A DNA stretch of 64,000 nucleotides. Origin: Ectocarpus siliculosus. Lineage: Eukaryota > Sar > Phaeophyceae > Ectocarpales > Ectocarpaceae. The notes under the pieces are model-generated. The model did not search any database. It saw only the letters and a list, made by a program, of their open reading frames with translations, and had not been told where the DNA came from. The DNA lies in NCBI GenBank assembly GCA_000310025.1, contig FN649740.1, positions 1,869,415-1,933,414 of the forward strand, in the 5' to 3' direction. This document shows, in pieces, positions 49,818-63,923 of the stretch. Both the position numbers and the translations under genes were made by a program. Position 1 is the stretch's first letter. The number at the start of each line of letters is the position of its first letter.

Positions 49818-50085
49818 TGTAGTGGTATGCACGCGTGATGAAGTCTGGTTGACCCGTGAAGAAGAACTCACTTGTTGTTACTCTTGTAGAACAGCAGCAG
49901 CAGTAGCTGTTGCCTTGGGTATCGGTAGGAATGACACCAAGGGGCACAGGATCCTCTGCACAAGTAGGGGCTACTAGATCATGTCCCCTACTTTTTATCC
50001 TTCCGCGGAGAGTTACATCTCTCCGCGCCTTCTAGAAGGAACCAAGCTCTTCTATGTTCCGTCTACACATCTGAATCCTATAACA
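49818..50085 (-). repeat. LTR (3' LTR of the element)
   Basis: 268 bp, differing from the other LTR at three positions, all transitions. On the coding strand it begins TGTTATAGG and ends CCACTACA. The short hairpin and the TATA-like box are present, as in the 5' LTR. Confidence 0.98.
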
Positions 50086-50659: not shown

Positions 50660-53600
50660 TTAATGTGGGCGCGCAACGTTATCAGGCAACGAATCAGTCC
50701 CGGGGTCACCACGCGACATGTCGACGTTGCGAAGGATCCCCTTAAAAAGGGCACTGCCGCTGTGAACTTGGAGGCACCAGGATCCGGAGACGGCGGTTTC
50801 AGCGGTGGAGTAGCGAACATCAGGAAGGGCGAGCTTGACAGGGCCAGGATCGTCCAAGAAGCGGACGACGTAGAAGTCGGACGGTAGAGGCGGTCCAGTA
50901 ATCTTGCCCAACCACCAGAATCCATCGCGAGCTTTGTACCAGAAGAAGGCGCCTGCAGGTAGCGGAGTATTGGCGAAGCGACGGTCCCAAGTTGAACGAG
51001 AGACGAGCGAATAACCCGAAGGCAAAGCTCGCTCCCCTTTAGCGCGCGCCATCTCGCGGGTGGCCGCACCAATACGCATAGCCCGATAGCGACGATTCGT
51101 TTGGCGATGTTGATCAGGCGAACCCGTCCAGTACCGGAGAATGTGGGGCTTGGAATGCTGGAGGTCCATCTCACGTTCCCAAGAAGGACGAAGAAGACCT
51201 TTCCAATGCGTTTGGTATAAAACAGCGATGGTGCCACCACGGCCACGAACAGACTGATGGCCACTAATGCGGTCAACCTCGAGACGTTCGACCGGAGTCG
51301 ACACGTCGTCTTCCGTAACATGGTAGGGAGGAGATTTATTCGCATAGGAGTTTAGCACATACGGTGTAAGGCCGGCAGGCAGGAACCGAGGCAAGTCTTC
51401 AGTGTCATGCGGATTAGCGCAAGGCTTGCAACGCGCAACTGATACACGGTTTTTCGAGTCCGGACCCGGCAGATCCGATGGAAGATCCAAATACAGTAAC
51501 TTGGAAGCCAGAGGACAACCGTCAGGAGCGTCAGGACACGGACCCACGGCCAAGATCTTGAACTGACCAGTCCAAAGGAAAGACAACTTAGCCTTGAGGA
51601 CCTTGTCATCCGTGCCTGAACGAACACCTTGGCGAATGGTAGATTCGGTGTTGTACACCCAAACCCATCCACCGACGGTGTATGAGGGGACCTTGCGCAA
51701 AGCATCCGATAGAGCGGAGTTACGCCGCTCAATCCTCGAAACGGACAGGTTGCGCTGTTCGCGAACTAAATCGTAAGAACGACGTTGGCGATCAGCAGCA
51801 AGATCGCAATACTCAAGTTGATCGCGATGCAAGCTTTGGTGGCCTCGAGCATATGGATGCTCAAAAACCGTCATCGGCATGCGTGGCAGTCGGTTCATAT
51901 GCACCTCGTTGGGCGCCAAACCAGTAGCGGCACTAACCGAATTGTTGTAGGCAAACTCAACGTGCGGCAGATGAATGTCCCAATCATCTTGCCTCTCATT
52001 GACGACCATAGCCAACATCTGAGCCATAGTGTGATTTACGCGCTCCACACCCCCATTGCCGTTGGGATGGTAAGAGCTGGTAGCCACTTTGCGTATAGCC
52101 AGACGGGCGTATACAGCCTGCGACAGTTTAGAACAAAACTGAGAGCCATTATCAGACAAGAGACTCAAAGGGCAACCCCATAAAGGGATATACCGATTGA
52201 CAAGTACGTCAGCGGTGCCTTCGGCGGTGAATTCTGCAGCCGTAACCGCGTACATGTCAGCACGGCGGCTGAAACGGTCAGTGAAAAGCAGAATATATGT
52301 GTTTCCGCGCGGTGTCAACGGGAGGGGACCGAAATAATCGACGCTCACCGATACACCTGGGCCCGAAGGCAGCGGAAGGCACAAAGTAGGCCATCGAGGC
52401 GTTTGACGAGATGACTTGCGAGCTTGGCATCGCAAACAATGCCGTACCCACCACTTCGTGCAAACACTCATGCCAACCCACCAATAAAAACGTTCCAGCA
52501 TGCTAAGCGTGCGAGCGGCACCGAGGTGGCAGGATGCATCAGCGTGACAGGCTTGCATGATCCACGGACGCATGAGCATGGGAACATAAATCCGAATGGG
52601 TTTGTCGTTGAGAAGGCGAGCAGCACGCCCGCCAGGACGTGTGGTCGTAGACGACGGGGGCGCTGTTTGCTTGCGAACAAGCAAGACCAAACCATCATCG
52701 CCGACATGTAACTGGCCTTTGTTAGACAGGTCACGAATCTCCGACAGAGGAGGTCGACGAGCGGACGGAAGATGATCCAGGAAATCCGGAGGGAGAGCCG
52801 AAGGCCGACCCAGAAGGATGAAACGAATAGCTGCATCACAAACAGGTTCGTTACGTTGCTCGCGAGCCCAATCAGCATGCGAGAAACGTTCGACAGACGC
52901 CCGGAAGGCTAAATCTGCCGAGGAATGTAAAGCCGCCTCGATAGAAGAGGGGGCCGATTCCTGAGGCTCCGGCGGCAATCCACCCGAAGGCAGAGTAGCA
53001 GCGGAAACCGAAGACGAAGGCGTATAAGTGGTCGAAACCAAATGCGTCGAAGATTCCGAAGAATCGGGAGCAGCAGAAGACTGCTGGGCAGGAGCAACCG
53101 AAGTTGCAGGATGTGTCGAAGACGCAAGATCCCTTCCACGAGCCAGAGGCGTATGGAGGTCTGGGATCGAAGTGTCAGCACCAGGAGCCGAAACCAACCT
53201 GGTCAAAACGGGGGGCGCCGTCGATGCTGATTGTGCAGGCGGGGAACGTCGAAACGATCTGGGCGAAGCGGAAATCCGAGTAGGAGCCGGCGGGTCCTCA
53301 GAGAAACCATAATCCACGGGCGGGAGGGGCGTGCCTGCCACAACCGCCGTGCGACGGCGAGTTCGCGTGGAAATCAGTTGAGTAGGGTCGAGAGTCCGTC
53401 GTGATGCTGCAGTCGGCGAGACGGCCGGCGAAGACTCGGGCTCGAGAGCCAAAATGTCCTCCACCGAAGAATGTAAGGAGCCAGACCAACCGAGGGTCCT
53501 GTCACGCAAGCGTCGTAGCGAAGGAGACAACCCGCGGGAGTTGATGGACGGCCAGGGTGCAATGTTCCAGATGCCAGACGGAGACGAAAGGCCTGACGGC

Positions 53601-54439
53601 GAGAGACGTGGACCATGCCGACGGAAGTCGACAAAATCATCTGTAGAGGGGGCCAGCCCACCCAAGACCGAAGTCGGGGAAGTTGGGACGAGCCCACCCA
53701 AGCCAACACCCACGGCGCGATGGCCAGAAGGCGTAAGGCCACAAGAACGGATGAAGAATACGCTCTCCTCATCGTCATCCGGTGTCAAGCGACTGCGACC
53801 AGATCGGTCACATTCCGCCGCATCGATCGGAAGGCGAGAGAGGAAATCAGCGTTGCCATTTGCGGAACCCTTGCGGTACTCGAGAGTGTAATTGTAGGCG
53901 GTAAGAAATTCAAGCCAACGCTGAACGCGGGCATTATTCTCCCCCACCTTGGCAAAATGCTCAAGAGATTTGTGGTCGGTAAAAATGCGAAATTTCGTGC
54001 CCCACAAATAACCGCGAAGTCGTTTGATGCACCATAATACGATGCTACCCGCCTCGAGGTCGAGGGGAGTCCAATGACGTTCGGAGTCCAAAGTAGCTCG
54101 GCTGATGAAAACGATGGGCCGGATGGAGCCATCCGGCTGTTCTTGTTCGAGAGTCCCGCCGAACCCATCGCGACTAGCATCACAGTAGAGGCGAAAAGGT
54201 CGCGAGCCGTCCGTAACGGCATCCCAATCTGGATAAACCAAGACAGGAGGGTTGGCCAACTCAGACAACAGGACGCGAACAGCTTGCTCCATGGCAGGGG
54301 TGAAGGCGAACGTCGCCTGCTTCTTGAGAAGAGTGGTCAAAGGTCGAATTCGCGTAGCCATGTTGGGAAGGAACTTGCGGTAGTAGCTGAGGCCGCCGAG
54401 AAGAGAGCGAAGTTGTTTAACATCCTTAGGCATGGGCAT
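50660..54439 (-). CDS. RNase H - integrase - chromodomain - Tudor-like part of Pol
   Basis: An open frame of 1,259 residues. It begins in the RT C-terminus (KDVKQLRSLLGGLSYYRKFL), then RNase H (LYCDASRDGFGG near 54185, FTDHKSLEHF near 53970). A ~300-residue Ser/Pro-rich linker follows. Integrase has the HHCC finger (HADASCH near 52540, HCLRCQ near 52430) and the DDE core: VDYFGPLP near 52335, SDNGSQF near 52150 and NGGVERVN near 52050. After it come a chromodomain (VERLEVDRISGH ... THWKGLLRPSWERE, about 51130-51300) and a Tudor/SH3-like segment (FFWYKARDGFWWLGKI ... YVVRFLDDPGP, about 50790-50955). All catalytic acids of integrase are present. Chromodomains steer integration to marked chromatin in chromoviruses; the tail could add a second reader (inference). 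Confidence 0.93.
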   Translation of the reverse strand: MPMPKDVKQLRSLLGGLSYYRKFLPNMATRIRPLTTLLKKQATFAFTPAMEQAVRVLLSELANPPVLVYPDWDAVTDGSRPFRLYCDASRDGFGGTLEQEQPDGSIRPIVFISRATLDSERHWTPLDLEAGSIVLWCIKRLRGYLWGTKFRIFTDHKSLEHFAKVGENNARVQRWLEFLTAYNYTLEYRKGSANGNADFLSRLPIDAAECDRSGRSRLTPDDDEESVFFIRSCGLTPSGHRAVGVGLGGLVPTSPTSVLGGLAPSTDDFVDFRRHGPRLSPSGLSSPSGIWNIAPWPSINSRGLSPSLRRLRDRTLGWSGSLHSSVEDILALEPESSPAVSPTAASRRTLDPTQLISTRTRRRTAVVAGTPLPPVDYGFSEDPPAPTRISASPRSFRRSPPAQSASTAPPVLTRLVSAPGADTSIPDLHTPLARGRDLASSTHPATSVAPAQQSSAAPDSSESSTHLVSTTYTPSSSVSAATLPSGGLPPEPQESAPSSIEAALHSSADLAFRASVERFSHADWAREQRNEPVCDAAIRFILLGRPSALPPDFLDHLPSARRPPLSEIRDLSNKGQLHVGDDGLVLLVRKQTAPPSSTTTRPGGRAARLLNDKPIRIYVPMLMRPWIMQACHADASCHLGAARTLSMLERFYWWVGMSVCTKWWVRHCLRCQARKSSRQTPRWPTLCLPLPSGPGVSVSVDYFGPLPLTPRGNTYILLFTDRFSRRADMYAVTAAEFTAEGTADVLVNRYIPLWGCPLSLLSDNGSQFCSKLSQAVYARLAIRKVATSSYHPNGNGGVERVNHTMAQMLAMVVNERQDDWDIHLPHVEFAYNNSVSAATGLAPNEVHMNRLPRMPMTVFEHPYARGHQSLHRDQLEYCDLAADRQRRSYDLVREQRNLSVSRIERRNSALSDALRKVPSYTVGGWVWVYNTESTIRQGVRSGTDDKVLKAKLSFLWTGQFKILAVGPCPDAPDGCPLASKLLYLDLPSDLPGPDSKNRVSVARCKPCANPHDTEDLPRFLPAGLTPYVLNSYANKSPPYHVTEDDVSTPVERLEVDRISGHQSVRGRGGTIAVLYQTHWKGLLRPSWEREMDLQHSKPHILRYWTGSPDQHRQTNRRYRAMRIGAATREMARAKGERALPSGYSLVSRSTWDRRFANTPLPAGAFFWYKARDGFWWLGKITGPPLPSDFYVVRFLDDPGPVKLALPDVRYSTAETAVSGSWCLQVHSGSALFKGILRNVDMSRGDPGTDSLPDNVARPH

Positions 54440-55743
54440 TTTGGTGAGGGCCGAACACCGTCAGGGGAGATGGTGTGGCCGAGGAAATCCGCTTCGGTAG
54501 CGCCAATGGTGGCCTTCGGTGGGGTGAGTTTCAAGTTGTGTGTGCGCAAGCGTTCAAACAGAGCGCGCATGGTATCAACATGAGAAGCCGGGTTGTCGTC
54601 GAAAACGATCAAATCATCCAAGTACGATGCAACACCGTGGAGATTTTTGATGACTTCGTTGACCACCTTGCAAAACCACCCAGGGGCAGCAGAACTGCTC
54701 TGAGGCATCTTCAACCACTCAAAAAGCCCGGAAGACGTCACGAATGCCGTCAAAGGGATTGTATCACGGTGAACCGTGATTTGGTGGAACGAAGACTTCA
54801 TGTCGAAGAGGGAATAGATTCGCCCTTTCAACAGCTTGTCCAAAGTATCATCAACTCGAGGAATCGGAAGCTGGCTCAAAGCACAAAGCTTGTTGAGCTT
54901 GCGATAGTTGACAGTGATGCGAACACCACCAGATTTCTTCGGTATGATTACCAAAGGACTCGAGTAGGGCGAGGTCGAATGTTGGATCAGACCAGTCGCA
55001 AGATATTGATCAAGGATCGCGTCAACTTGTTTCGCCACCGGGGGGTTAACGCGGTATGGACGAGACGTGACGGGTGCACTGCCCGGAGGAACTGTAAGCT
55101 TGAAAGGAAAAAGCGAACAAGGTCCAAAGTCGATGGGGGAACTCGAGAAGACATCATGATAGTCGCACAGGACGTTACCAAGCTGAGTGATGACATCCGG
55201 AGTCCAACCCGGACCATGGAGATCAAAAGAAATCTCACGGAGATGGCAGGGGAGCTTATCCCATACGTGGGAAAAACTCTGACGTTGTTCAGACGTCAAC
55301 CGCTCGAGAAGAGCAGGCGGAGGCGACGAAAGAGAAGCACTGGCAGAACCAGGGTCCTCTTTGCCGCTTTGCGACGGCGTGGGTCGCTCATGCAAATTAT
55401 ACACGAAGGGGTCATCAACGCGATGCGTGGCAGACGAATCAATGCCATCTGTCGAAACAGGACCCGGAACCCAGCTGCCCGAAGCAGTGGTGGGATCTTG
55501 AGCCGCAGATTGAAGACCATCGCTCAAACTGTGGCGAGACACAGCACTGAGAGGCACGCGAAGAAGGGGAGCCGAAGCTGTACCCAGAACGTCGCCTGGT
55601 TCGAGTGAAGAGATACCCGCGAGCGGGAGTCGTTGGCAACCATTTTGCACAAAGTGTTCCTCGGAAGAAAACATAGCACATTGTGGAAGCATATCCACGA
55701 GATAGTTACCCACGAGGGCTGGAGAGCCATCGCTGCGTACCAA
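54440..55743 (-). CDS. Reverse transcriptase part of Pol
   Basis: The frame from 55743 runs on to 54337, but useful similarity stops near 54440. It encodes a spacer and then the RT core: SPLVIIPKKSGGVRITVNYR (fingers), SLFDMKSSFHQI with the first catalytic Asp, GLFEWLKMPQSSSAAPGWF, and SYLDDLIVF with the YLDD catalytic box near 54615. DFLGHTISPDG follows, after which a small out-of-frame deletion moves similarity to the next frame (start of the RNase H-integrase ORF). A frame change also separates it from the protease ORF near 55765. Both breaks would prevent a full-length Pol from this copy unless frameshifting occurs. Confidence 0.93.
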
Positions 55744-58172
55744 ATTAACCGGAACAAGGCATGTTCAGGGTGAAGTTGGACGGAATGTTTTCCAGCATAG
55801 CGAAGCTGGTAGTTACCATCTGTGGAAGACAAATCGTGAGCGAATGCGGTGGCACCGCAACTGCTATGCTGAGCCAGGGTAAGCTCACCAAAAACACGGT
55901 CACCAGGGCGTTTGGCACGCAAAGTGCGGTAAGAGCGGTCGCTAAACCGCATCCAACTGTCTCTCCCAAGGAGCACGTCATGATGCATAACACCACCGGG
56001 AACAACGTACGCCCAAACAGCGAGAGAGGAAGTAGGAAGGCGCTTGCGAAGAAACTGCACGCTCAAGCGGACAATAGTCGAAGTTTGAAGTGGAGCAGAT
56101 TCGCCGAAACCTCCCCAACAGCGAGGTTGGGTTTGTTTCTCAGACAACGACGAAGCGGCCGAAGTGGCTTTCATGGATTCCCACGCAGATGCACTAATAA
56201 AAGACTGCGGGGAACCCGTGTCTAAAAGAGCAACACATCCAAACTGAACAGAAGCTGAACCACTGTGAGTGAGGATTTGGGTGGTGAAAGAGTCATCATC
56301 GATGGTAACAACACCATCAACCAAATCCGGACCTTGCTCAGGAAGCAAAGAAGAGGAAGAGAATGGCTGAGGGCACCCGGAAGACACGGCCCAAACAGCG
56401 GTGTCATGATCCGATGGAACATTCGCAGCGTATTGTGAAAACGACGCGAATCGTTCAGTCGACGGAGGGGTTGAGGCCATCCGAAGACGCTGGTGTGTAG
56501 AAGGGCTAACTTCATAAACCGCGTTATGTTGAGACGACGTCGAAACGTGGTCGTTGGGGGGCAGCAAACGAGAGCTGCGCTCGGGCGGCGGGGCATTGCA
56601 TCGCAAAAGACTGCGTACTCGTTGAAGGGCATTGCCCAACAAATTGAGGCCACGCCATCGAGAGGTGGATAGAGCGTCAAGATCATCGGCTTGAAGGCAA
56701 ATGCCCCAAATACGGTCGTAGGGACTAGCTTCGGCAAGGATTTTGTCGCCAGATCCGAGAAGATGCTCGCGCAACTCGGAGTTTTGACTAAATTTTGCGT
56801 AAGAGCCAGTGAGCACAATATTTTCGCGCTCCTGTTCCCAAAGTGATGGGTCGAAACCACGGACACCTCGGCCAAACTTCTTGTGTAGGGCAGGATCGGA
56901 CACGCGCATGATGTTTTGTAAAGCGCAATGGTCTTCGAAAAGACGAGCTTTTTCCGCAGCGAAAAACTGCTCAGCACAAGAGTACACCACTCCATCGACC
57001 ACAAAAGTCGACGGGGTCCATTGGGAAAAGGGAGAGGGGGGCTGCCAAAAGAAGACCATATCAGGAGTACAATACTCGTTAGATGGGTCGAAGACATCGC
57101 GAACTGCAGGAGTCGAAACACCTGGAGTGCGGTCAGCCGAAGCTGAGGTTGCAGCCGAAGCTGATGTAGTCGAAGCGGAGGAGGCAGCCGAAACGCCCGC
57201 ATTGTAATTGACGGCGTGAACGTCCATGTGGACGGTCTCGGGTATGTCAGAGACCGGCGAAGAATCGACGGGAGCCGGATTGTTCGCAATAATTGGGCCA
57301 GCGACATCACGCTGGGTGCGCCCCAATTCTAAACCTGAAGAAACGCCTCGTAAGGTGTCATTCAACAGGTTGCTTTCGCTAGGAACGGCCGCCAAGGCCG
57401 GGTCGGTTAAAGAACCAAACCGGGCGTGGTGCTCCTGGCCATTCCTCCGTGACAAGGTACGCGAGACCGCCGGTTGTTCGGAGGTCACTCCGGGAGGGTC
57501 CTCCCGAAGCGGTGGTGTCAACACTGTCGACGTCGGTCGCGGCGGCCTGGTATCGGGCGCCGTGGGGCGAGCGTGCGTCGGAAGGGATGGAGCGTCCGAA
57601 GACGATCCATGGTCGAAATATCTCGTGGCGGAATCTGATGATGTTCGGCGGTCAGGACCAAGAGAACAACGCGATTCGAAGCCAGGCGAATTTGACCCTG
57701 TAACTTGCCGGTCGGAACCAGTCAAATTAGCTACCGGTGCAACAATCGAGGGCGAACCCTCAACGGAAGCGGGCACAGACGAGTTGAGCGTATCCGAAGA
57801 TTCACCCGAGGTAACCAATTCAGGCGATTCCTCTTCAATCGTCCAAAGCGCATGGCTACGGCCGGTCTGATCTGCAGACGACGGGGGGAGCGAACGAGCG
57901 GTGCCCGACAAACGAGCGGTACTCGATGGCCCCGAAGGTCCTACGGTTCTGTTCCCGCACCTCAAGACAGTACTCGCGCCAGACTGGTTAGTTTCTGACG
58001 GAGCGCCAGTCCGAAGAGACAGAGACGCAGAGGTGGCAGATGATAAGTGCGATGTAGAAGGTGGGACGAGAGCATAATGTCTGGATACCGACCTGATCGA
58101 CACTGGGAGAAACAACGGATACCGAAGTATGGTTGTTATTGTGAGGCACCGAAGTACCAGAAGGGATAACAT
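55524..58172 (-). CDS. NADAR (YbiA-like) domain fused to aspartic protease, in Gag-Pol
   Basis: An open frame of 882 residues. Residues 1-370 are Ser/Thr/Pro-rich. Residues about 372-497 (plus-strand 56681-57059) match the NADAR/YbiA fold: PSPFSQW, VDGVVYSCAEQFFAAEKARL, KKFGRGVRGFD, SLWEQERENIV, GSYAKFSQN and EASPYDRIWGI. The Glu of the AEQ motif, the Trp of LWxxxR and the Asp of SPYDRIWG, which correspond to active-site residues in the family, are all present. YbiA-like enzymes cleave N-glycosidic bonds, and NADAR proteins are linked to ADP-ribose/NAD metabolism (established). Residues about 640-760 hold a retropepsin-like protease with CVALLDTGSPQSFIS (near 56215). Similarity leaves this frame near 55765. 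The NADAR domain is intact although the element is damaged. Confidence 0.88.
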   Translation of the reverse strand: MLSLLVLRCLTITTILRYPLFLPVSIRSVSRHYALVPPSTSHLSSATSASLSLRTGAPSETNQSGASTVLRCGNRTVGPSGPSSTARLSGTARSLPPSSADQTGRSHALWTIEEESPELVTSGESSDTLNSSVPASVEGSPSIVAPVANLTGSDRQVTGSNSPGFESRCSLGPDRRTSSDSATRYFDHGSSSDAPSLPTHARPTAPDTRPPRPTSTVLTPPLREDPPGVTSEQPAVSRTLSRRNGQEHHARFGSLTDPALAAVPSESNLLNDTLRGVSSGLELGRTQRDVAGPIIANNPAPVDSSPVSDIPETVHMDVHAVNYNAGVSAASSASTTSASAATSASADRTPGVSTPAVRDVFDPSNEYCTPDMVFFWQPPSPFSQWTPSTFVVDGVVYSCAEQFFAAEKARLFEDHCALQNIMRVSDPALHKKFGRGVRGFDPSLWEQERENIVLTGSYAKFSQNSELREHLLGSGDKILAEASPYDRIWGICLQADDLDALSTSRWRGLNLLGNALQRVRSLLRCNAPPPERSSRLLPPNDHVSTSSQHNAVYEVSPSTHQRLRMASTPPSTERFASFSQYAANVPSDHDTAVWAVSSGCPQPFSSSSLLPEQGPDLVDGVVTIDDDSFTTQILTHSGSASVQFGCVALLDTGSPQSFISASAWESMKATSAASSLSEKQTQPRCWGGFGESAPLQTSTIVRLSVQFLRKRLPTSSLAVWAYVVPGGVMHHDVLLGRDSWMRFSDRSYRTLRAKRPGDRVFGELTLAQHSSCGATAFAHDLSSTDGNYQLRYAGKHSVQLHPEHALFRLIWYAAMALQPSWVTISWICFHNVLCFLPRNTLCKMVANDSRSRVSLHSNQATFWVQLRLPFFACLSVLCLATV

Positions 58173-58386: not shown

Positions 58387-61125
58387 TCATCCGCTGCGAG
58401 AACGGCCACCATTTTGGAAGTTGCCAGGTTGACGGGCATTGTGATTGGTCGAAACCATGATGCCAGACGAAGGACCGGTGTGTGCATGCGTTTGTGGTTG
58501 ATAGAGGGACAGAGCACCAGTGTGGTTGGTGTTGATCGAAGGGTGTTGCTGAGGGTGAGAGTTACCCGCAGAATTTCCTGGGGCATACCCACTGTTGTGC
58601 GATTGTGTCTGAAGAGTGTGAGGGGAACCACCACCGTCGGAACAGCGATTCCCAGCATGGTTTCGACGCTGAGAGGACGAAGAGGAAGAGCGCTGGTGGC
58701 GTCTACCCTGATTGTTTTGGCGGTTGTCCGCACTTTTTCGTCGAAAAGACCGCATACGGCCTTGCCAACGTCTAAAAGCAGCAGAATCGTCATTGAGGAG
58801 ACCCAACTCGGGGTTCAACAACCCACTCGAATTCGTGAACGGTGCAACGCATTGCTTCATGGAATGGTCTTCACCCGAGCAGTTCAGACAGCGATTCCTG
58901 TTTTCGCGGAAGGCTTGCGAGCGAGCCTCTTGTGTCAACAAAGGAGTCCACAAAAAAGGATCCTCCGTGTTACGAAAACTAGAAGTGAGAGCGTATACAT
59001 CAGACCAATCGGCTTGCGAAGCAGGCCAAGAATTATAGTTGCGTGTGAAAGGGTCAGCATCGTGCGATTGTACCGGCAAAACTACAGGGTTCTGAGCTGA
59101 ACCTGGTGCCCACTGGCCCGAAGGCGCGGGGGCGCGGTGTTGGGACCGCCGAGGCTGCGAGGAGCCACGCGTCGAAGACAACGAAAAATAAGATGAACCG
59201 CCGATAGCCGGGGTTTTATTTGTCGCTAGAGGCGCGAACGCCTCCCACATATCCGCAATCGACGCAAAGGGAGTGACGGCCGTGGCCAGAGCACCCGGGT
59301 ACAAAATCGGAGACAAACTCGGAAATTGCTTGCAGACCGAATGCCGCACTATTTCTAGAACCATGGATACGCTAGGGGCCAAAGTACGCTCAGAGCCAGT
59401 CACAGACGAAACCAACAAACGAAAAGCACGAAGGTAATCCGCGAAAGAAGTACCATCTGCTACTCCAAATTGATGAAGCCTCAAAAACGACTCTTGACGG
59501 TCGCCGACATCAAATTGCTCCGCAAGATGACGCAACAGCAACTGAAAAGCTTCTGGTCCGGTGGCGCCGCCGTCCAAGCTTCTCTTCACCTGCTGAAAGT
59601 AATCAGCGATGGAAAGGACAAGATCGGCAGTAGAGGGCTTGTCAGGGGTGATCGCACCCGAAAGTTTCTTTTCGAGAGGCCGTTCCCATCCAGGCACGTA
59701 ATCAGTACTGTCCAACCCTTCGCTTTGGTCATCACACAGCAACAATATGTCGGACAAGGCCGTTCGTGTTGTGCGGATGAGCTGTTGGTAGCCGTCCCCA
59801 GGCAACAAAGTTGAAGGGAAGGGCATGGTAGCGACATTTCCAACTTTTTTCAAGTTCAGAGTGATGTACGCCCGTTGGACAGTAACTACGTGAGCCTTGC
59901 GAACTGCCGAAGCAGCCGCATCTACCGTGGCTTGACGAGCATGTGCAATGTTGGAAGAAAGTGGCAAAACACTATCATCCAAAACGACAGGGGGTGCAGC
60001 AGCTGCAACCGAAGAAGCAGCAGGCGGAACACGATCCCAAGACGGTACAACCTGATGAACATCTTGTACGGGCACAAAAGTCGAAGGGGGGGTTGGGTTT
60101 GAGAACCCGGGGTTGTGTGCGATTCCTGAGCCTACAGCATAATCAGCGGTAGAAAAAACAGGAGGTGCAACAGTTTCCGAAGAAACGAGGGGGGCCGAAG
60201 CCTGTGCCATGTTCGAAAACGCAACACGAGTTTCCGAAGAAACGGGGGGGGCCGAAGTCGGAGGGACAAAATCATCACGCAACAAAAAACGAGCATCCGA
60301 AGTTGCGTCCATGAGGGACGGAACTACTTGCCTTTGACGACCTGGCTTGCGGGGCAAACTGGTGTCCGAGCCTGACCCGGTCTTGCACTTGCCTTTGGAG
60401 CTGCGAGCTCCATTCCCGCCACGCTTGGCCACCTTTCTCTCCCGGCTACCACCCACCGAAGAGGACGAAGGCGCCGGGGGTCGACGCGATGCTCCAGCCG
60501 AGCTCCAGCCAGACTCCTCGCCCGAGCTACCAGGACCACTCTCCCGACTCGGTTGCGCCTGCTTGACACGACCCGGCGCCGGCTGCTGGAACACATAGGA
60601 AGCCTCTAAAGGCGGACCGCTGCAGCCAGGGTACACCACCGGAGCAGTGGCACGGGCGTTGGCTGTCCGCATCCCAGCGAGGAAACGGCCGGCCAGATCC
60701 CGAAGATCCAGACGGGAGGTGTTGGCCACATCCACCGCCGCCTGTATGGTGGCGGCCGCCGGCAACGCGATGGCCACTTCCGTGGCCAAGTCCCTGACCG
60801 ATTGGCTATCTTCAGGAAGGAAGTTGAACTGCTGGTACTGCGCAACATCGGCTAGCTTAGCCGGGGTGAACCTGTAATCACCTGGCTCGAACGCGATGAA
60901 GCCACGTCGCGACGACGAGGAGCGGGTGACCGGGCTGGTCGAAGCTGCAGCCGCATACGTTCGAGACGAAGCGGCAGAGGTGGTCGGTGCCGAGGCAGCT
61001 CGCCTGCCGATTCCCGAGGAGCGGGACGATCTCGCCGACGCAGAATTCCACCAGGAAGTCTCCGTCCGAGAGGAGGAGCTCAGGCTCCTCCGAGCGACGC
61101 GCGCTTCGAATGCGAAGCAGATCAT
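58387..61125 (-). CDS. Gag, main part, with CCHC zinc knuckle
   Basis: An open frame of 912 residues. Its first ~35 residues are read antisense through an inverted repeat (61024-61179) and are probably not native. A Ser/Gly-rich basic region follows, then a helical capsid-like segment (QLLLRHLAEQFDVGDRQESF, FADYLRAFRLLVSSV). The zinc knuckle CLNCSGEDHSMKQC, a CX2CX4HX4C motif (58849-58890), is followed by a basic Arg/Ser/Asn-rich tail. The frame ends at TGA (58387). The same frame stays open for another ~130 codons past this stop, so it may be a readthrough site or a point mutation. Gag forms the particle and packages the RNA. Confidence 0.88.
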   Translation of the reverse strand: MICFAFEARVARRSLSSSSRTETSWWNSASARSSRSSGIGRRAASAPTTSAASSRTYAAAASTSPVTRSSSSRRGFIAFEPGDYRFTPAKLADVAQYQQFNFLPEDSQSVRDLATEVAIALPAAATIQAAVDVANTSRLDLRDLAGRFLAGMRTANARATAPVVYPGCSGPPLEASYVFQQPAPGRVKQAQPSRESGPGSSGEESGWSSAGASRRPPAPSSSSVGGSRERKVAKRGGNGARSSKGKCKTGSGSDTSLPRKPGRQRQVVPSLMDATSDARFLLRDDFVPPTSAPPVSSETRVAFSNMAQASAPLVSSETVAPPVFSTADYAVGSGIAHNPGFSNPTPPSTFVPVQDVHQVVPSWDRVPPAASSVAAAAPPVVLDDSVLPLSSNIAHARQATVDAAASAVRKAHVVTVQRAYITLNLKKVGNVATMPFPSTLLPGDGYQQLIRTTRTALSDILLLCDDQSEGLDSTDYVPGWERPLEKKLSGAITPDKPSTADLVLSIADYFQQVKRSLDGGATGPEAFQLLLRHLAEQFDVGDRQESFLRLHQFGVADGTSFADYLRAFRLLVSSVTGSERTLAPSVSMVLEIVRHSVCKQFPSLSPILYPGALATAVTPFASIADMWEAFAPLATNKTPAIGGSSYFSLSSTRGSSQPRRSQHRAPAPSGQWAPGSAQNPVVLPVQSHDADPFTRNYNSWPASQADWSDVYALTSSFRNTEDPFLWTPLLTQEARSQAFRENRNRCLNCSGEDHSMKQCVAPFTNSSGLLNPELGLLNDDSAAFRRWQGRMRSFRRKSADNRQNNQGRRHQRSSSSSSQRRNHAGNRCSDGGGSPHTLQTQSHNSGYAPGNSAGNSHPQQHPSINTNHTGALSLYQPQTHAHTGPSSGIMVSTNHNARQPGNFQNGGRSRSG

Positions 61126-61795
61126 CGACCTCGAGGCACTTCAAAAGAAGTGCGAACAGCAGAGGAGTCAACTGGCCGCCACCTTGACGGCAGACCGGCG
61201 CCAGGAGGACGCGCCCGTCGAAGCGGGCCGTAAGGCCGGCAAACGACGGGAGCAGGACCTCCGCGAACGACCGGTCGTTCGCGGCCAGTTGACTCCTCTG
61301 CTGTTCGCACTTCTTTTGAAGTGCCTCGAGGTCGATGATCTGCTTCGCATTCGAAGCGCGCGTCGCTCGGAGGAGCCTGAGCTCCTCCTCTCGGACGGAG
61401 ACTTCCTGGTGGAATTCTGCGTCGGCGAGATCGTCCTGGGCCTGTCGGGCGGCCGCCCGGTCAGCATCGACGGCGGCGCCGCTCGTCATGCGAACGGCGT
61501 CCGTCCAAGCGGTCGAGCGCGCATCCGCGGACATGACGTCCCACAGGGCTGCGGGGACCCACCGCGGGCAGGAGAGAGGTGCAGCCGTGGCCGGAGCCGT
61601 GGCCGGAGCCGTGGCCGAAGCCGTGGCCGAAGCCGGGGGTACTGCCGAAGCAGGGGTGGCGGCCGAAGCCGAGGGCGCCGCCGAAGCAGCGGTGGTGGCC
61701 GAAGCCGAGGGCGCCGCCGAAGCAGCGGTGGTGGCCGAAGCCGAGGGTGCCGCCGAAGCAGCGGTGGTGGCCGAAGCCGAGGGGGGTAGGACCAT
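60878..61795 (-). CDS. Gag leader, second segment, ending in the inverted repeat
   Basis: 305 codons in the same frame as the upstream leader, separated from it by one TAG. It starts with Ala/Ser-rich 12-residue repeats (36-bp units), then a Trp-containing segment (CPRWVPAALWDVM) and a predicted coiled coil (ADAEFHQEVSVREEELRLL, KQIIDLEALQKKCEQQRSQL). After the inverted repeat the frame runs into unrelated antisense sequence, so the native junction to the Gag core is lost or scrambled. Confidence 0.6.
   Translation of the reverse strand: MVLPPSASATTAASAAPSASATTAASAAPSASATTAASAAPSASAATPASAVPPASATASATAPATAPATAAPLSCPRWVPAALWDVMSADARSTAWTDAVRMTSGAAVDADRAAARQAQDDLADAEFHQEVSVREEELRLLRATRASNAKQIIDLEALQKKCEQQRSQLAANDRSFAEVLLPSFAGLTARFDGRVLLAPVCRQGGGQLTPLLFALLLKCLEVDDLLRIRSARRSEEPELLLSDGDFLVEFCVGEIVPLLGNRQASCLGTDHLCRFVSNVCGCSFDQPGHPLLVVATWLHRVRAR
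61024..61436. repeat. 156-bp inverted repeat with central palindrome inside gag
   Basis: Arms 61024-61179 and 61281-61436 are reverse complements with no mismatch noticed. The 101-bp spacer ends in a 24-bp palindrome (61261-61284, centre ACCGGT). Because of the symmetry both strands encode the same coiled-coil segment. Confidence 0.9.
61570..61790 (-). repeat. 12- and 36-bp coding minisatellite in the Gag leader
   Basis: On the plus strand GCCGTGGCCGGA-type 12-mers (about five) pass into a 36-bp unit containing GCCGAAGCCGAGGGCGCCGC, repeated nearly four times. It encodes an Ala/Ser/Thr/Pro repeat. Confidence 0.85.
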
Positions 61796-63709
61796 CTAGA
61801 CAGGCTCGGCCGGCCGGCCGGTGACTGCAGACCTTGTTCCGCCACCGGTGGTGGAATCCCGAAGCTCGGGAGTCGAAAGCCGAGCTGAAGATGTCGGCTC
61901 GTGCTTGGGGGCGGGAGTCGTGGTCACCATGGTGCTAAGAAGGCCGTGGAGATGGCGATTATAGCGTTCTGCGATTTCGAGACGATGCAAAGCATCAGCC
62001 GTAGCGGCACGTTCATGCGAAGAGGAAAGCATGGGGGGGGGTGGGGGCACGGCGTAAGGGTAAGGGGAAAGGGTAGGGGCAGAGGGTACTGCTGAAACAA
62101 CCGAGGTCGCAGCTAGGGGCGCCGAAGCAGGAGCTAGCATGGCAGAGTCGGTCGAAACGGTAGGATCGAAACCCGCCGTGTGAACACGTGAATCTGTGGA
62201 AAATGCGAGCAGAGGCGTATCTACTGGCATGGAAACAGCGGTGTTTACAGCAGCCGAAGCCGCTGACACAGGGTTCTGTGTGGAAGTAGTGTGGGCGGGG
62301 AAAGGGGCAGACGACACTGTACGCAGGGTCGAAACGGTGCGAAGAGGCGGAGCTGCAGGAATAATAGCATCGCCAGCAGTCGAAACTGTGGGCAGGGGCG
62401 GAGTTAATGGAATGGGCAAAAGTACACGTGCAGCAGTCGAAACCGCAGAGACAGGTGCACCAGTAGTGGGAACATGATAGGCATGTGGGTGGGCAGACGT
62501 CACAGCAGTACGCAGCGTCCAAACGGTACGCAAAGGTGGGGCAGCTAAGGCAGCAGCACCGCGAACAGTCGAAACTGTGGGTAGCGGCGGAGCTAAAGGG
62601 ATGGAGGCAAACACACCTACAGCAGTCGAGACCGCAGGGACAGGCACATTAGCAGTCGAAACTGCACGTGTAGTCGAAACTACTGAAGCTAAAGCATCGG
62701 AGGCAAACGAAATGGCCTGTGAGGGCGAAACCACGGGATCAGATGCAGTAGAATCAGCCGAAAGAGCTGGGGTAGACGAGGCTACTGTGGGGAGTGTACC
62801 AGAGGCAATCGAAATCGCCCGTGTAGTCGAAACTACTGGAACAGTGGTTGGTGATGCGGCGGAATCTGCAAGCGGTGATGTCACTGAAGCAGATGCACGA
62901 CGGTCACGAAGCCGTTGAGCGCGAGCCGCTGCTTGTACACGATCGCTACGAGAAGAAAAAGGGGGAATCGCCGGCACTGTATAGTCGAACTGCAACGTGC
63001 TGCGAGAAGCCGAGCGACTGGACAAGCGTGGTACTACAGGGCCAGCAACATGGTCGAAACCGATGTCGGTCCCAAGAGCAGGGTGCTCAACGGTGGATGG
63101 GGCGAGAGGAAAATTCGAGTCGACATGTGGTTCACGCGGGAATTCAGAAAGCTCATCACCAGCAGCCGTCGAGACGGACTGCTGTTGTACACCCAAAGAC
63201 ACAGAGGCAAAAACCGAAGTTCCAGGTGTGGGTGCTGGCGGTTTGAGGACAGCACCCACGGGGTTAGCGTCGATCGAAGCCGGCGAGGCGAACCTCTCCC
63301 GAATGCGTTGAGCGCGAAGCTCTGACAAACGAGCGGCATCGGCAACAGGGTCAGCGGCACGAGCACCGTCCGAAGACAGCAGCAGTTGTGTGGCCTGACG
63401 GCCAGCTGCCGGGGACCCGAAGGTCGCTACACGGGGCGATGACACTGGCGAACGCGAACGTTCCGAATGCTCAGGACTCGCCGAAGCAGAGTCTGATGAG
63501 CCGACGCTAGGTTGAGACATACCGATAAGCGAGGCAAAGCTAAGCTGTGGTTGGGGCGAAAGCGCAAAAAACTGCAGCAGCAGTCCAAAGCACCAAACCG
63601 CGCCAAGACACAACCAAGCCAGACAACACCGTACGAATAAGCCGACAACGCCAAGTGTAGTGGTATGCACGCGTGATGAAGTCTGGTTGACCCGTGAAGA
63701 AGAACTCAC
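61796..63709 (-). CDS. Ala/Ser/Pro-rich leader ORF of the retrotransposon
   Basis: 637 codons open, but the first ATG lies inside the LTR and the preceding residues are hydrophobic LTR read-through. The likelier start is 63520 (MSQPSVGSSDSASASP), giving about 574 residues. It contains Ser/Thr/Val/Pro-rich repeats of about 60 residues (PPLPTVSTV, APPLRTVWTLRT and PPLPTVSTA, APPLRTVSTLRT), then a short helical segment (HERAATADALHRLEIAERYN). It ends at TAG, with the same frame open afterwards. Function is unknown; it could be an N-terminal extension of Gag. Confidence 0.6.
   Translation of the reverse strand: MSSSSRVNQTSSRVHTTTLGVVGLFVRCCLAWLCLGAVWCFGLLLQFFALSPQPQLSFASLIGMSQPSVGSSDSASASPEHSERSRSPVSSPRVATFGSPAAGRQATQLLLSSDGARAADPVADAARLSELRAQRIRERFASPASIDANPVGAVLKPPAPTPGTSVFASVSLGVQQQSVSTAAGDELSEFPREPHVDSNFPLAPSTVEHPALGTDIGFDHVAGPVVPRLSSRSASRSTLQFDYTVPAIPPFSSRSDRVQAAARAQRLRDRRASASVTSPLADSAASPTTVPVVSTTRAISIASGTLPTVASSTPALSADSTASDPVVSPSQAISFASDALASVVSTTRAVSTANVPVPAVSTAVGVFASIPLAPPLPTVSTVRGAAALAAPPLRTVWTLRTAVTSAHPHAYHVPTTGAPVSAVSTAARVLLPIPLTPPLPTVSTAGDAIIPAAPPLRTVSTLRTVSSAPFPAHTTSTQNPVSAASAAVNTAVSMPVDTPLLAFSTDSRVHTAGFDPTVSTDSAMLAPASAPLAATSVVSAVPSAPTLSPYPYAVPPPPPMLSSSHERAATADALHRLEIAERYNRHLHGLLSTMVTTTPAPKHEPTSSARLSTPELRDSTTGGGTRSAVTGRPAEPV
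63641..63653 (-). promoter_or_regulatory. Primer binding site
   Basis: Two bases inside the 5' LTR the coding strand reads TGGCGTTGTCGGC. Its complement, GCCGACAACGCCA, has the CCA end of a tRNA. I cannot assign the tRNA. Confidence 0.7.
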
Positions 63710-63923
63710 TTGTTGTTACTCTTGTAGAACAGCAGCAGCAGTAGCTGTTGCCTTGGGTATCGGTAGGAATGACACCAAGGGGCACAGGATCCTCTGCACA
63801 AGCAGGGGCTACTAGATCATGTCCCCTACTTTTTATCCTTCCGCGGAGAGTTACATCTCTCCGCGCCTTCTAGAAGGAACCAAGCCCTTCTATGTTCCGT
63901 CTACACATCTGAATCCTGTAACA
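63656..63923 (-). repeat. LTR (5' LTR of the element)
   Basis: 268 bp with TG...CA ends, matching 49818-50085 except at three positions. It is directly followed by the TTCG target duplication. Confidence 0.98.
63829..63865 (-). promoter_or_regulatory. LTR promoter: hairpin plus TATA-like box
   Basis: On the coding strand a CGCGGAGAG / CTCTCCGCG hairpin (63842-63865, 6-base loop) lies just upstream of GGATAAAAAG (63829-63838), a TATA-like box. The hairpin could also act in the RNA. Confidence 0.5.

What the first reader, a model, noticed from the sequence alone, without database searches (positions are those of the whole stretch)
56681..57059. NADAR (YbiA-like) domain built into a retrotransposon polyprotein
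A ~126-residue domain between Gag and the protease carries the whole NADAR signature (AEQFFAAEKA, KKFGRGVRGFD, SLWEQERENIV, AKFSQN, EASPYDRIWGI), with Glu, Trp and Asp active-site positions kept. NADAR proteins cleave N-glycosidic bonds and have been linked to reversal of ADP-ribosylation on nucleic-acid guanine. A retroelement carrying one could remove host-applied ADP-ribose marks from its RNA or cDNA, or deplete an NAD-derived signal. The domain is intact although neighbouring parts are frameshifted. I cannot exclude earlier mention of such fusions.
Basis: partly seen in the sequence, partly recalled or inferred. Interest (0 to 1): 0.88.

Follow-up and report, generated by a model that had tools for sequence, protein, structure and literature searches.

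The report
Retrotransposon carrying a NADAR enzyme domain
A jumping gene in what looks like a brown alga carries, inside its own enzyme polyprotein, a well-preserved copy of an enzyme domain whose relatives remove ADP-ribose tags from the base guanine; this pairing was already reported in the alga Ectocarpus in 2025, and what the domain does for the element is still untested.

The parts
63656..63923 (-). 5' LTR (268 bp)
   Evidence: Direct repeat; 3 mismatches to the other LTR (1.1%); begins TG, ends CA; flanked by TTCG
49818..50085 (-). 3' LTR (268 bp)
   Evidence: TTCG on both outer flanks gives a 4-bp target-site repeat
63641..63653 (-). Probable tRNA primer-binding site two bases inside the 5' LTR (TGGCGTTGTCGGC)
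   Evidence: Sequence just inside the LTR printed; identification by the usual TGG start (recalled); tRNA not identified
61796..63709 (-). 637-aa Ser/Thr/Pro-rich ORF, perhaps the N-terminal part of Gag
   Evidence: no Pfam match
58387..61125 (-). Gag-like ORF (912 aa) with a CCHC zinc knuckle at 58890-58849 (CLNCSGEDHSMKQC)
   Evidence: motif read directly; no Pfam match
55524..58172 (-). Pol N-terminal ORF of this copy (882 aa): linker, NADAR, protease
56601..57053 (-). NADAR domain, YbiA subfamily, complete (ORF residues 374-524)
55863..56312 (-). Aspartic protease region (LLDTGSPQSF motif)
   Evidence: Motif read; no Pfam match; region found after NADAR in 20 of 20 longer own loci
54469..54945 (-). 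Reverse transcriptase (RVT_1)
   Evidence: Pfam E 5.4e-24
53894..54205 (-). RNase H (RT_RNaseH)
   Evidence: Pfam E 7.6e-29
52064..52585 (-). Integrase: H2C2 zinc binding (52585-52409) and core rve (52360-52064)
   Evidence: Pfam E 8.2e-13 and 7.3e-9
51128..51280 (-). Putative chromodomain at the C-terminus of integrase
   Evidence: Pfam Chromo E 0.0034, 17.7 bits, below the cut-off of 25.1; AlphaFold model poor, pLDDT 38

Best explanation
The finding is the NADAR domain of a Ty3/Gypsy LTR retrotransposon lineage that captured a YbiA-type NADAR, most simply once, and has kept it as part of Pol since (fusion, conservation and co-inheritance shown; the donor is not). The domain is probably an active ADP-ribosylhydrolase. 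The likeliest role, inferred: it is made with Pol, goes into the Gag particle, and there or in the cytoplasm strips ADP-ribose from guanine bases of the element's RNA or newly made cDNA, so that reverse transcription is not blocked by ADP-ribosyltransferases of the host, its viruses or associated microbes. Identity and conservation: about 0.97. Active hydrolase: about 0.85. Guanine ADP-ribose on the element's nucleic acid as the selected substrate: about 0.45.
For: Domain. Active site: the nine positions named in PMC11543638 for Phytophthora NADAR (E43, K50, K75, R79, W89, R93, E125, D130, W133; passages; K75 is said there not to interact directly) are identical in the window, and each is kept in 44-47 of 47 other own copies. 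Element: LTRs, target repeat, Gag knuckle, RT, RNase H, integrase. Not a lone copy: 150 matches listed, 127 without internal stop, 22 in stop-free frames of 2,000-2,600 codons; NADAR followed by the protease region in 20 of 20 loci and by RT in 19 of 20. Selection: in four pairs between families dN/dS is 0.069-0.110 for NADAR, 0.056-0.077 protease (3 pairs), 0.037-0.044 RT (3 pairs), 0.045-0.061 RNase H. One capture: a clade of 81 of 150 rows with support 100/96 holds all 11 own rows and all 10 RT- or RNase-H-bearing protein rows of the tree; NADAR and RT identities rise and fall together, r 0.90 over 153 pairs of 18 elements. Biochemistry of the family: NADARs reverse guanine ADP-ribosylation in DNA (PMC11543638) and were the only hydrolase family among those tested to do so in RNA (PMC11833690; passages incl. 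abstract).
Against: No enzyme that ADP-ribosylates guanine was found: DarT PF14487 none, KptA PF01885 none; pierisin/ScARP- or YarT-like writers were not searched. PARP exons exist, but the PARP marks described in the passages that I saw are on RNA phosphate ends or uracil, which the NADARs tested there did not reverse. E. coli YbiA was significantly less active on RNA than C7 NADAR and did not rescue cells from DarT1 or YarT, so membership of the YbiA subfamily alone does not fix the substrate in vivo. Three of 47 own copies have lost K50 and two each R93 or E125. In all four useful pairs NADAR has the highest dN/dS of the domains compared, and dS is near saturation, so the ratios are rough; the closer pair window-L035 gives 0.31 and L039-L042 is too similar to use. 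In the second, unnamed lineage R93, a phosphate contact, is Cys in 40 of 47 rows.
Confidence: 0.5

Rival explanations
1. The domain is an active enzyme, but its selected substrate is a small molecule: an NAD-derived alarm signal or ADP-ribose derivative made by a defence enzyme, which it destroys while the element is expressed.
For: Proposed in print for viral NADARs, phage ones above all (PMC9503650, passages); the active site is intact, which fits any ADP-ribose substrate.
Against: Being built into Pol, in the families sampled here, points to the particle rather than to a diffusible enzyme; in another section the same review favours macromolecular substrates for NADARs of eukaryotic RNA viruses, which lie in polyproteins.
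Confidence: 0.22
2. The domain serves mainly as a nucleic-acid- or ADP-ribose-binding module, for example to hold the RNA or to find PARP-marked chromatin or damaged DNA for integration; catalysis is secondary.
For: C. [quoted passage not shown] Ectocarpus Gypsy Pol proteins carry chromatin reader domains (PMC12477816).
Against: The catalytic Glu (E125 equivalent), E43 and K50 are kept in 45, 46 and 44 of 47 copies, which mere binding might not need.
Confidence: 0.17
3. The domain removes ADP-ribose from the element's or host's proteins (Gag, integrase, histones), as viral macrodomains are proposed to do.
For: Analogy with macrodomains in RNA-virus polyproteins (PMC9503650); PARP exons are present in the genome.
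Against: The NADAR activity described in the passages that I read is on guanine bases; I saw no report of protein substrates, and did not search for one.
Confidence: 0.08
4. A neutral passenger: captured by chance and carried along without function.
For: Some copies have internal stops, 23 of 150; NADAR has the highest dN/dS of the Pol domains compared.
Against: dN/dS of 0.07-0.11 between families; intact active site across families; 52% identity or more to the window in both deep lineages of the tree.
Confidence: 0.03

Closest known systems
NADAR-bearing Gypsy lineage of Ectocarpus, e.g. Gypsy-12_Ec32 (Dinatale et al. 2025, PMC12477816; outline, section 5 part 1 and three passages seen)
   Same: Ty3/Gypsy; [quoted passage not shown] putative C-terminal chromodomain on integrase; the paper says that all families of the lineage carry NADAR.
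   Different: No difference shown. Their consensus sequences and supplements were not available here, so a family-by-family match was not made; the host of the window is inferred, not named.
Ectocarpus sp. CCAP 1310/34 predicted proteins (P0002-P0007 and others)
   Same: NADAR 74-91% identical for P0002-P0007; P0003 joins NADAR, RT, RNase H and integrase, RT 98% identical over 210 residues.
   Different: Unnamed gene models; in P0003 the protease region is missing between NADAR and RT, presumably a splicing guess.
NADAR domains in ORF1 of Tx1 LINEs of Crassostrea gigas (reported in PMC12477816)
   Same: A YbiA-family NADAR in a retrotransposon.
   Different: LINE, not LTR element; in ORF1; called divergent there; not examined here.
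Phytophthora nicotianae NADAR, PDB 8bau, and E. coli YbiA, 2b3w
   Different: Solved as stand-alone proteins; 34% and 29% identity.
NADAR domains in polyproteins of RNA viruses (nidoviruses and others; PMC9503650; BFVD matches such as Ingleside virus and yellow head virus)
   Same: A NADAR built into a replicase polyprotein.
   Different: RNA viruses without reverse transcription; distant sequence (28% and 19% identity for the two named).

Membership tests
NADAR superfamily (PF08719) | Match over the curated cut-off along the whole profile | tested here: met
   151.3 bits vs 35.1, profile 1-163 of 163
NADAR superfamily (PF08719) | YbiA fold | tested here: met
NADAR superfamily, YbiA subfamily | Glutamate (not Asp or His) at the catalytic position of the last strand (E125 in 8bau) | tested here: met
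   E110 of P0001; Glu in 45 of 47 other own copies
NADAR superfamily | Guanine-ADP-ribose hydrolase activity | not testable with these tools
   Needs purified protein
Ty3/Gypsy LTR retrotransposon | LTRs with TG...CA ends and short target-site repeat | tested here: met
   268-bp LTRs, 3 mismatches, TTCG repeat
Ty3/Gypsy LTR retrotransposon | Order protease-RT-RNase H-integrase | tested here: met
   protease by motif only
Ty3/Gypsy LTR retrotransposon | Gag with CCHC knuckle | tested here: met
   Motif at 58890-58849 read; no Pfam Gag match
Ty3/Gypsy LTR retrotransposon | RT groups with Gypsy elements in a tree | not tested
   No RT tree was built; filed as Gypsy by domain order and by close identity to the Ectocarpus proteins
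[quoted passage not shown]
NADAR-Gypsy lineage of Ectocarpus (Gypsy-12_Ec32 group) | C-terminal chromodomain on integrase (stated for Gypsy-12_Ec32) | tested here: inconclusive
   Chromo E 0.0034 below cut-off; poor model
NADAR-Gypsy lineage of Ectocarpus (Gypsy-12_Ec32 group) | Sequence match to the published consensus | not tested

The most novel reading that the evidence does not exclude
The lineage owes its persistence to a captured antitoxin-type enzyme: Gypsy particles carry their own guanine-ADP-ribose eraser, which implies an undescribed guanine ADP-ribosylation pathway, of the alga or of its viruses or bacteria, that restricts reverse-transcribing elements; the single capture and the two deep lineages seen here would then mark a long-lasting conflict in these hosts.
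Probability: 0.25. Interest if true: 0.85.

Novelty: already known. Interest (0 to 1): 0.38.

Why it matters
A retrotransposon that keeps a nucleic-acid ADP-ribose eraser under purifying selection is a natural lead to a base-ADP-ribosylation pathway in a eukaryote. Those make a simple assay on one small, well-folded domain worthwhile.

Tried and rejected
Considered and rejected: chance similarity; a host gene captured in one copy only; BC4488 or phage-type NADAR (Glu at the deciding position); neutral passenger.

Six papers were opened in all, none read in full. PMC12477816 is the only one that I saw to report the fusion; the other, unopened papers listed look unrelated by title. The library lacks most subscription papers and all preprints.

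Errors of mine: the lines about the window itself are void (an alignment row overwrote the window); they were redone. The locus lines stand.

Full report
Observation. The translation of window:56681-57059 on the minus strand is an open 126-residue stretch with all listed motifs. It lies in an 882-aa ORF, 58172-55524 minus. Among solved structures phmmer finds two sequences at E up to 0.001, both NADARs: 8bau (E 3.7e-15) and E. coli YbiA 2b3w (E 2.4e-8).

Element. Two 268-bp LTRs, 49818-50085 and 63656-63923, differ at 3 positions (1.1%), begin TG and end CA, and are flanked by TTCG on both sides. The element is read on the minus strand and is 14.1 kb long. From its 5' end: a long low-complexity ORF; a Gag-like ORF with CCHC (58890-58849); NADAR; a DTG protease motif; RT; RNase H; integrase; a weak chromodomain match. 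RT has Pfam E 5.4e-24, RNase H 7.6e-29, integrase H2C2 8.2e-13 and core 7.3e-9. The copy is young by its LTRs but broken: NADAR-protease, RT and integrase lie in three different frames. Other copies have long Pol frames: 22 of the 150 listed matches have a stop-free frame of 2,000-2,600 codons (two further matches with frames of 6,365 and 10,887 codons left out of this count). In 11 of the 30 loci L001-L030 the NADAR frame opens exactly 1,323 bases upstream of the query start, in one more at 1,320, in the other 18 elsewhere or beyond the stretch; so Pol probably begins with about 440 residues before NADAR. How Gag and Pol are joined in translation was not examined.

Abundance. A search of the window's own genome (189.5 Mb, 492 contigs) lists 150 matches at 53-100% identity; 245 candidates were seen and 150 scored, so this is a lower bound; two pairs of rows are pieces of one domain (on C21 and C394). 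Of the 150 rows 127 have no internal stop. The Pfam profile likewise lists 150 of 230 candidates. In 20 of 20 the protease region follows NADAR; in 19 of 20 RT, RNase H and at least part of integrase follow in the same order, with broken pieces in several; L037 shows only NADAR and protease.

Selection. Nei-Gojobori estimates between families: window against L039, NADAR 0.069, protease 0.064, RT 0.044, RNase H 0.061; window against L042, 0.089, 0.056, 0.037, 0.048; window against L043, 0.087, protease not available, 0.043, 0.057; L035 against L042, 0.110, 0.077, RT not available, 0.045. In each of the four NADAR is the least constrained, by up to about 2.5-fold, yet far below 1. The closer pair window-L035 gives 0.31, 0.28 and 0.22 (RT not available). 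The pair L039-L042 is too similar for a useful ratio. dS is 1.4-2.8 in the four pairs, near saturation. Comparisons with the 67% family are saturated (pS about 0.8); there, window against L048, NADAR pN (0.215) is close to RT (0.217) and RNase H (0.208) and below protease (0.323).

Active site. The residues that bind ADP-ribose or act in catalysis were taken from passages of PMC11543638 and carried over through the alignment. All nine match the window. Among 47 other own copies the counts are E43 46, K50 44, K75 46, R79 47, W89 46, R93 45, E125 45, D130 46, W133 47. In the 96 proteins, R93 is kept in only 26 (Cys in 56), while E125 is kept in 93, K50 in 95, W89 in 95; E43 is Glu in 85 and not covered in 8. 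By clade: Cys at 93 in 40 of the 47 rows of the unnamed lineage, in 1 of 23 protein rows of the Ectocarpus-like part. So the second lineage has changed a phosphate contact, which may matter for substrate; the catalytic Glu is kept in 45 of 47 and 23 of 23.

Origin and spread. Three protein searches returned 96, 965 (120 listed) and 17 proteins. Closest are Ectocarpus sp. CCAP 1310/34 proteins; many further long proteins come from unnamed ENA contigs of up to more than a megabase, in big clusters (P0027, 126 members; P0012, 76). For the tree I took 150 rows: 11 own, and of the 216 proteins held (10 dropped as gappy) the 86 remaining plus, of the 120 stand-alone ones, the first 30 and then every fourth. 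Eighty-one rows form one clade (bootstrap 100, SH-aLRT 96) holding all 11 own rows and all 10 protein rows that carry RT or RNase H; six further such proteins (P0011, P0075, P0088, P0089, P0090, P0095) were among the ten dropped, so their place is untested. The clade splits into an Ectocarpus-like part (34 rows, 99/84) and an ENA part (47 rows, 100/99). The named rows nearest outside it are bacterial MAGs (P0107, P0120, P0165 Planctomycetes; P0111 Myxococcota). One capture, from bacteria or from an unsampled relative, is the simplest reading; the rooting is by midpoint only and some deep supports are modest; no test against several captures was run. One eukaryote protein of 209 aa (P0119) falls inside the clade on a long branch with weak support. 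NADAR identity and RT identity correlate at r 0.90 (18 elements, 153 pairs; protease against RT r 0.97, RNase H against RT r 0.79), as expected if the domain was inherited together with RT.

What is known. Dinatale et al. 2025 (PMC12477816; [quoted passage not shown] That is the finding. The window's host is most probably Ectocarpus or a near relative (inference). I therefore rate it already known.

Mechanism. NADARs remove ADP-ribose from guanine in DNA (PMC11543638, passages; PMC11125620, first part and passages). A 2025 study found NADARs to be the only hydrolases among those tested that act on guanosine-ADP-ribose in RNA, and inactive on phosphate-end marks (PMC11833690, passages); PARP10-made uracil marks were not removed by the NADARs tried (PMC13036486, passages). 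An element that copies RNA into DNA would suffer from bulky guanine adducts on either, and a Pol-borne eraser would be packed with RT. This is inference. The weak point is the missing writer: DarT and KptA models find nothing in this genome, the four PARP matches are exon-sized, and guanine-specific writers of the pierisin/ScARP or YarT kind were not searched. Exon-wise search may miss genes.

Verdict. Real, conserved, well-folded and selected; already published; mechanism open.

Noticed in passing
window 61017-61443: Inverted repeat inside the Gag region: arms 61017-61179 and 61281-61443, 163 nt, 98% complementary, 101 nt apart; it lies where two Gag-region ORFs in different frames overlap or meet and may be a rearrangement private to this copy (not checked).
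   Followed up: no
window 50663-51128, minus strand: After the putative chromodomain, the integrase tail holds a segment (GAFFWYKARDGFWWLGKI...VVRFLDDPG) that recalls Tudor/PWWP-type readers (from memory). Pfam shows nothing there and the model is too poor.
   Followed up: partly
G000:C46:327197-327646 (minus): A full-length but low-scoring NADAR match (90.6 bits, 1055-codon frame) that the search with the window's domain did not list: possibly a host gene or another element lineage.
   Followed up: no
G000:C3:3913880-3914248 and G000:C489:435177-435455: NADAR matches in open frames of 10,887 and 6,365 codons, much longer than Pol; not explained.
   Followed up: no
P0012, P0027, P0221 and relatives: A second deep lineage of NADAR-Gypsy elements in unnamed ENA genomes with large clusters of members; position 93 (Arg in the window) is Cys in 40 of its 47 rows in the tree.
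   Followed up: partly
P0219, P0220 (Patella limpets): Limpet proteins of 958 and 923 aa with four matched NADAR stretches each: tandem NADAR proteins in molluscs.
   Followed up: no
L037: A copy with NADAR (85%) and a diverged protease region (58%) but no RT, RNase H or integrase match in the fetched 9.3 kb; truncated or non-autonomous.
   Followed up: no
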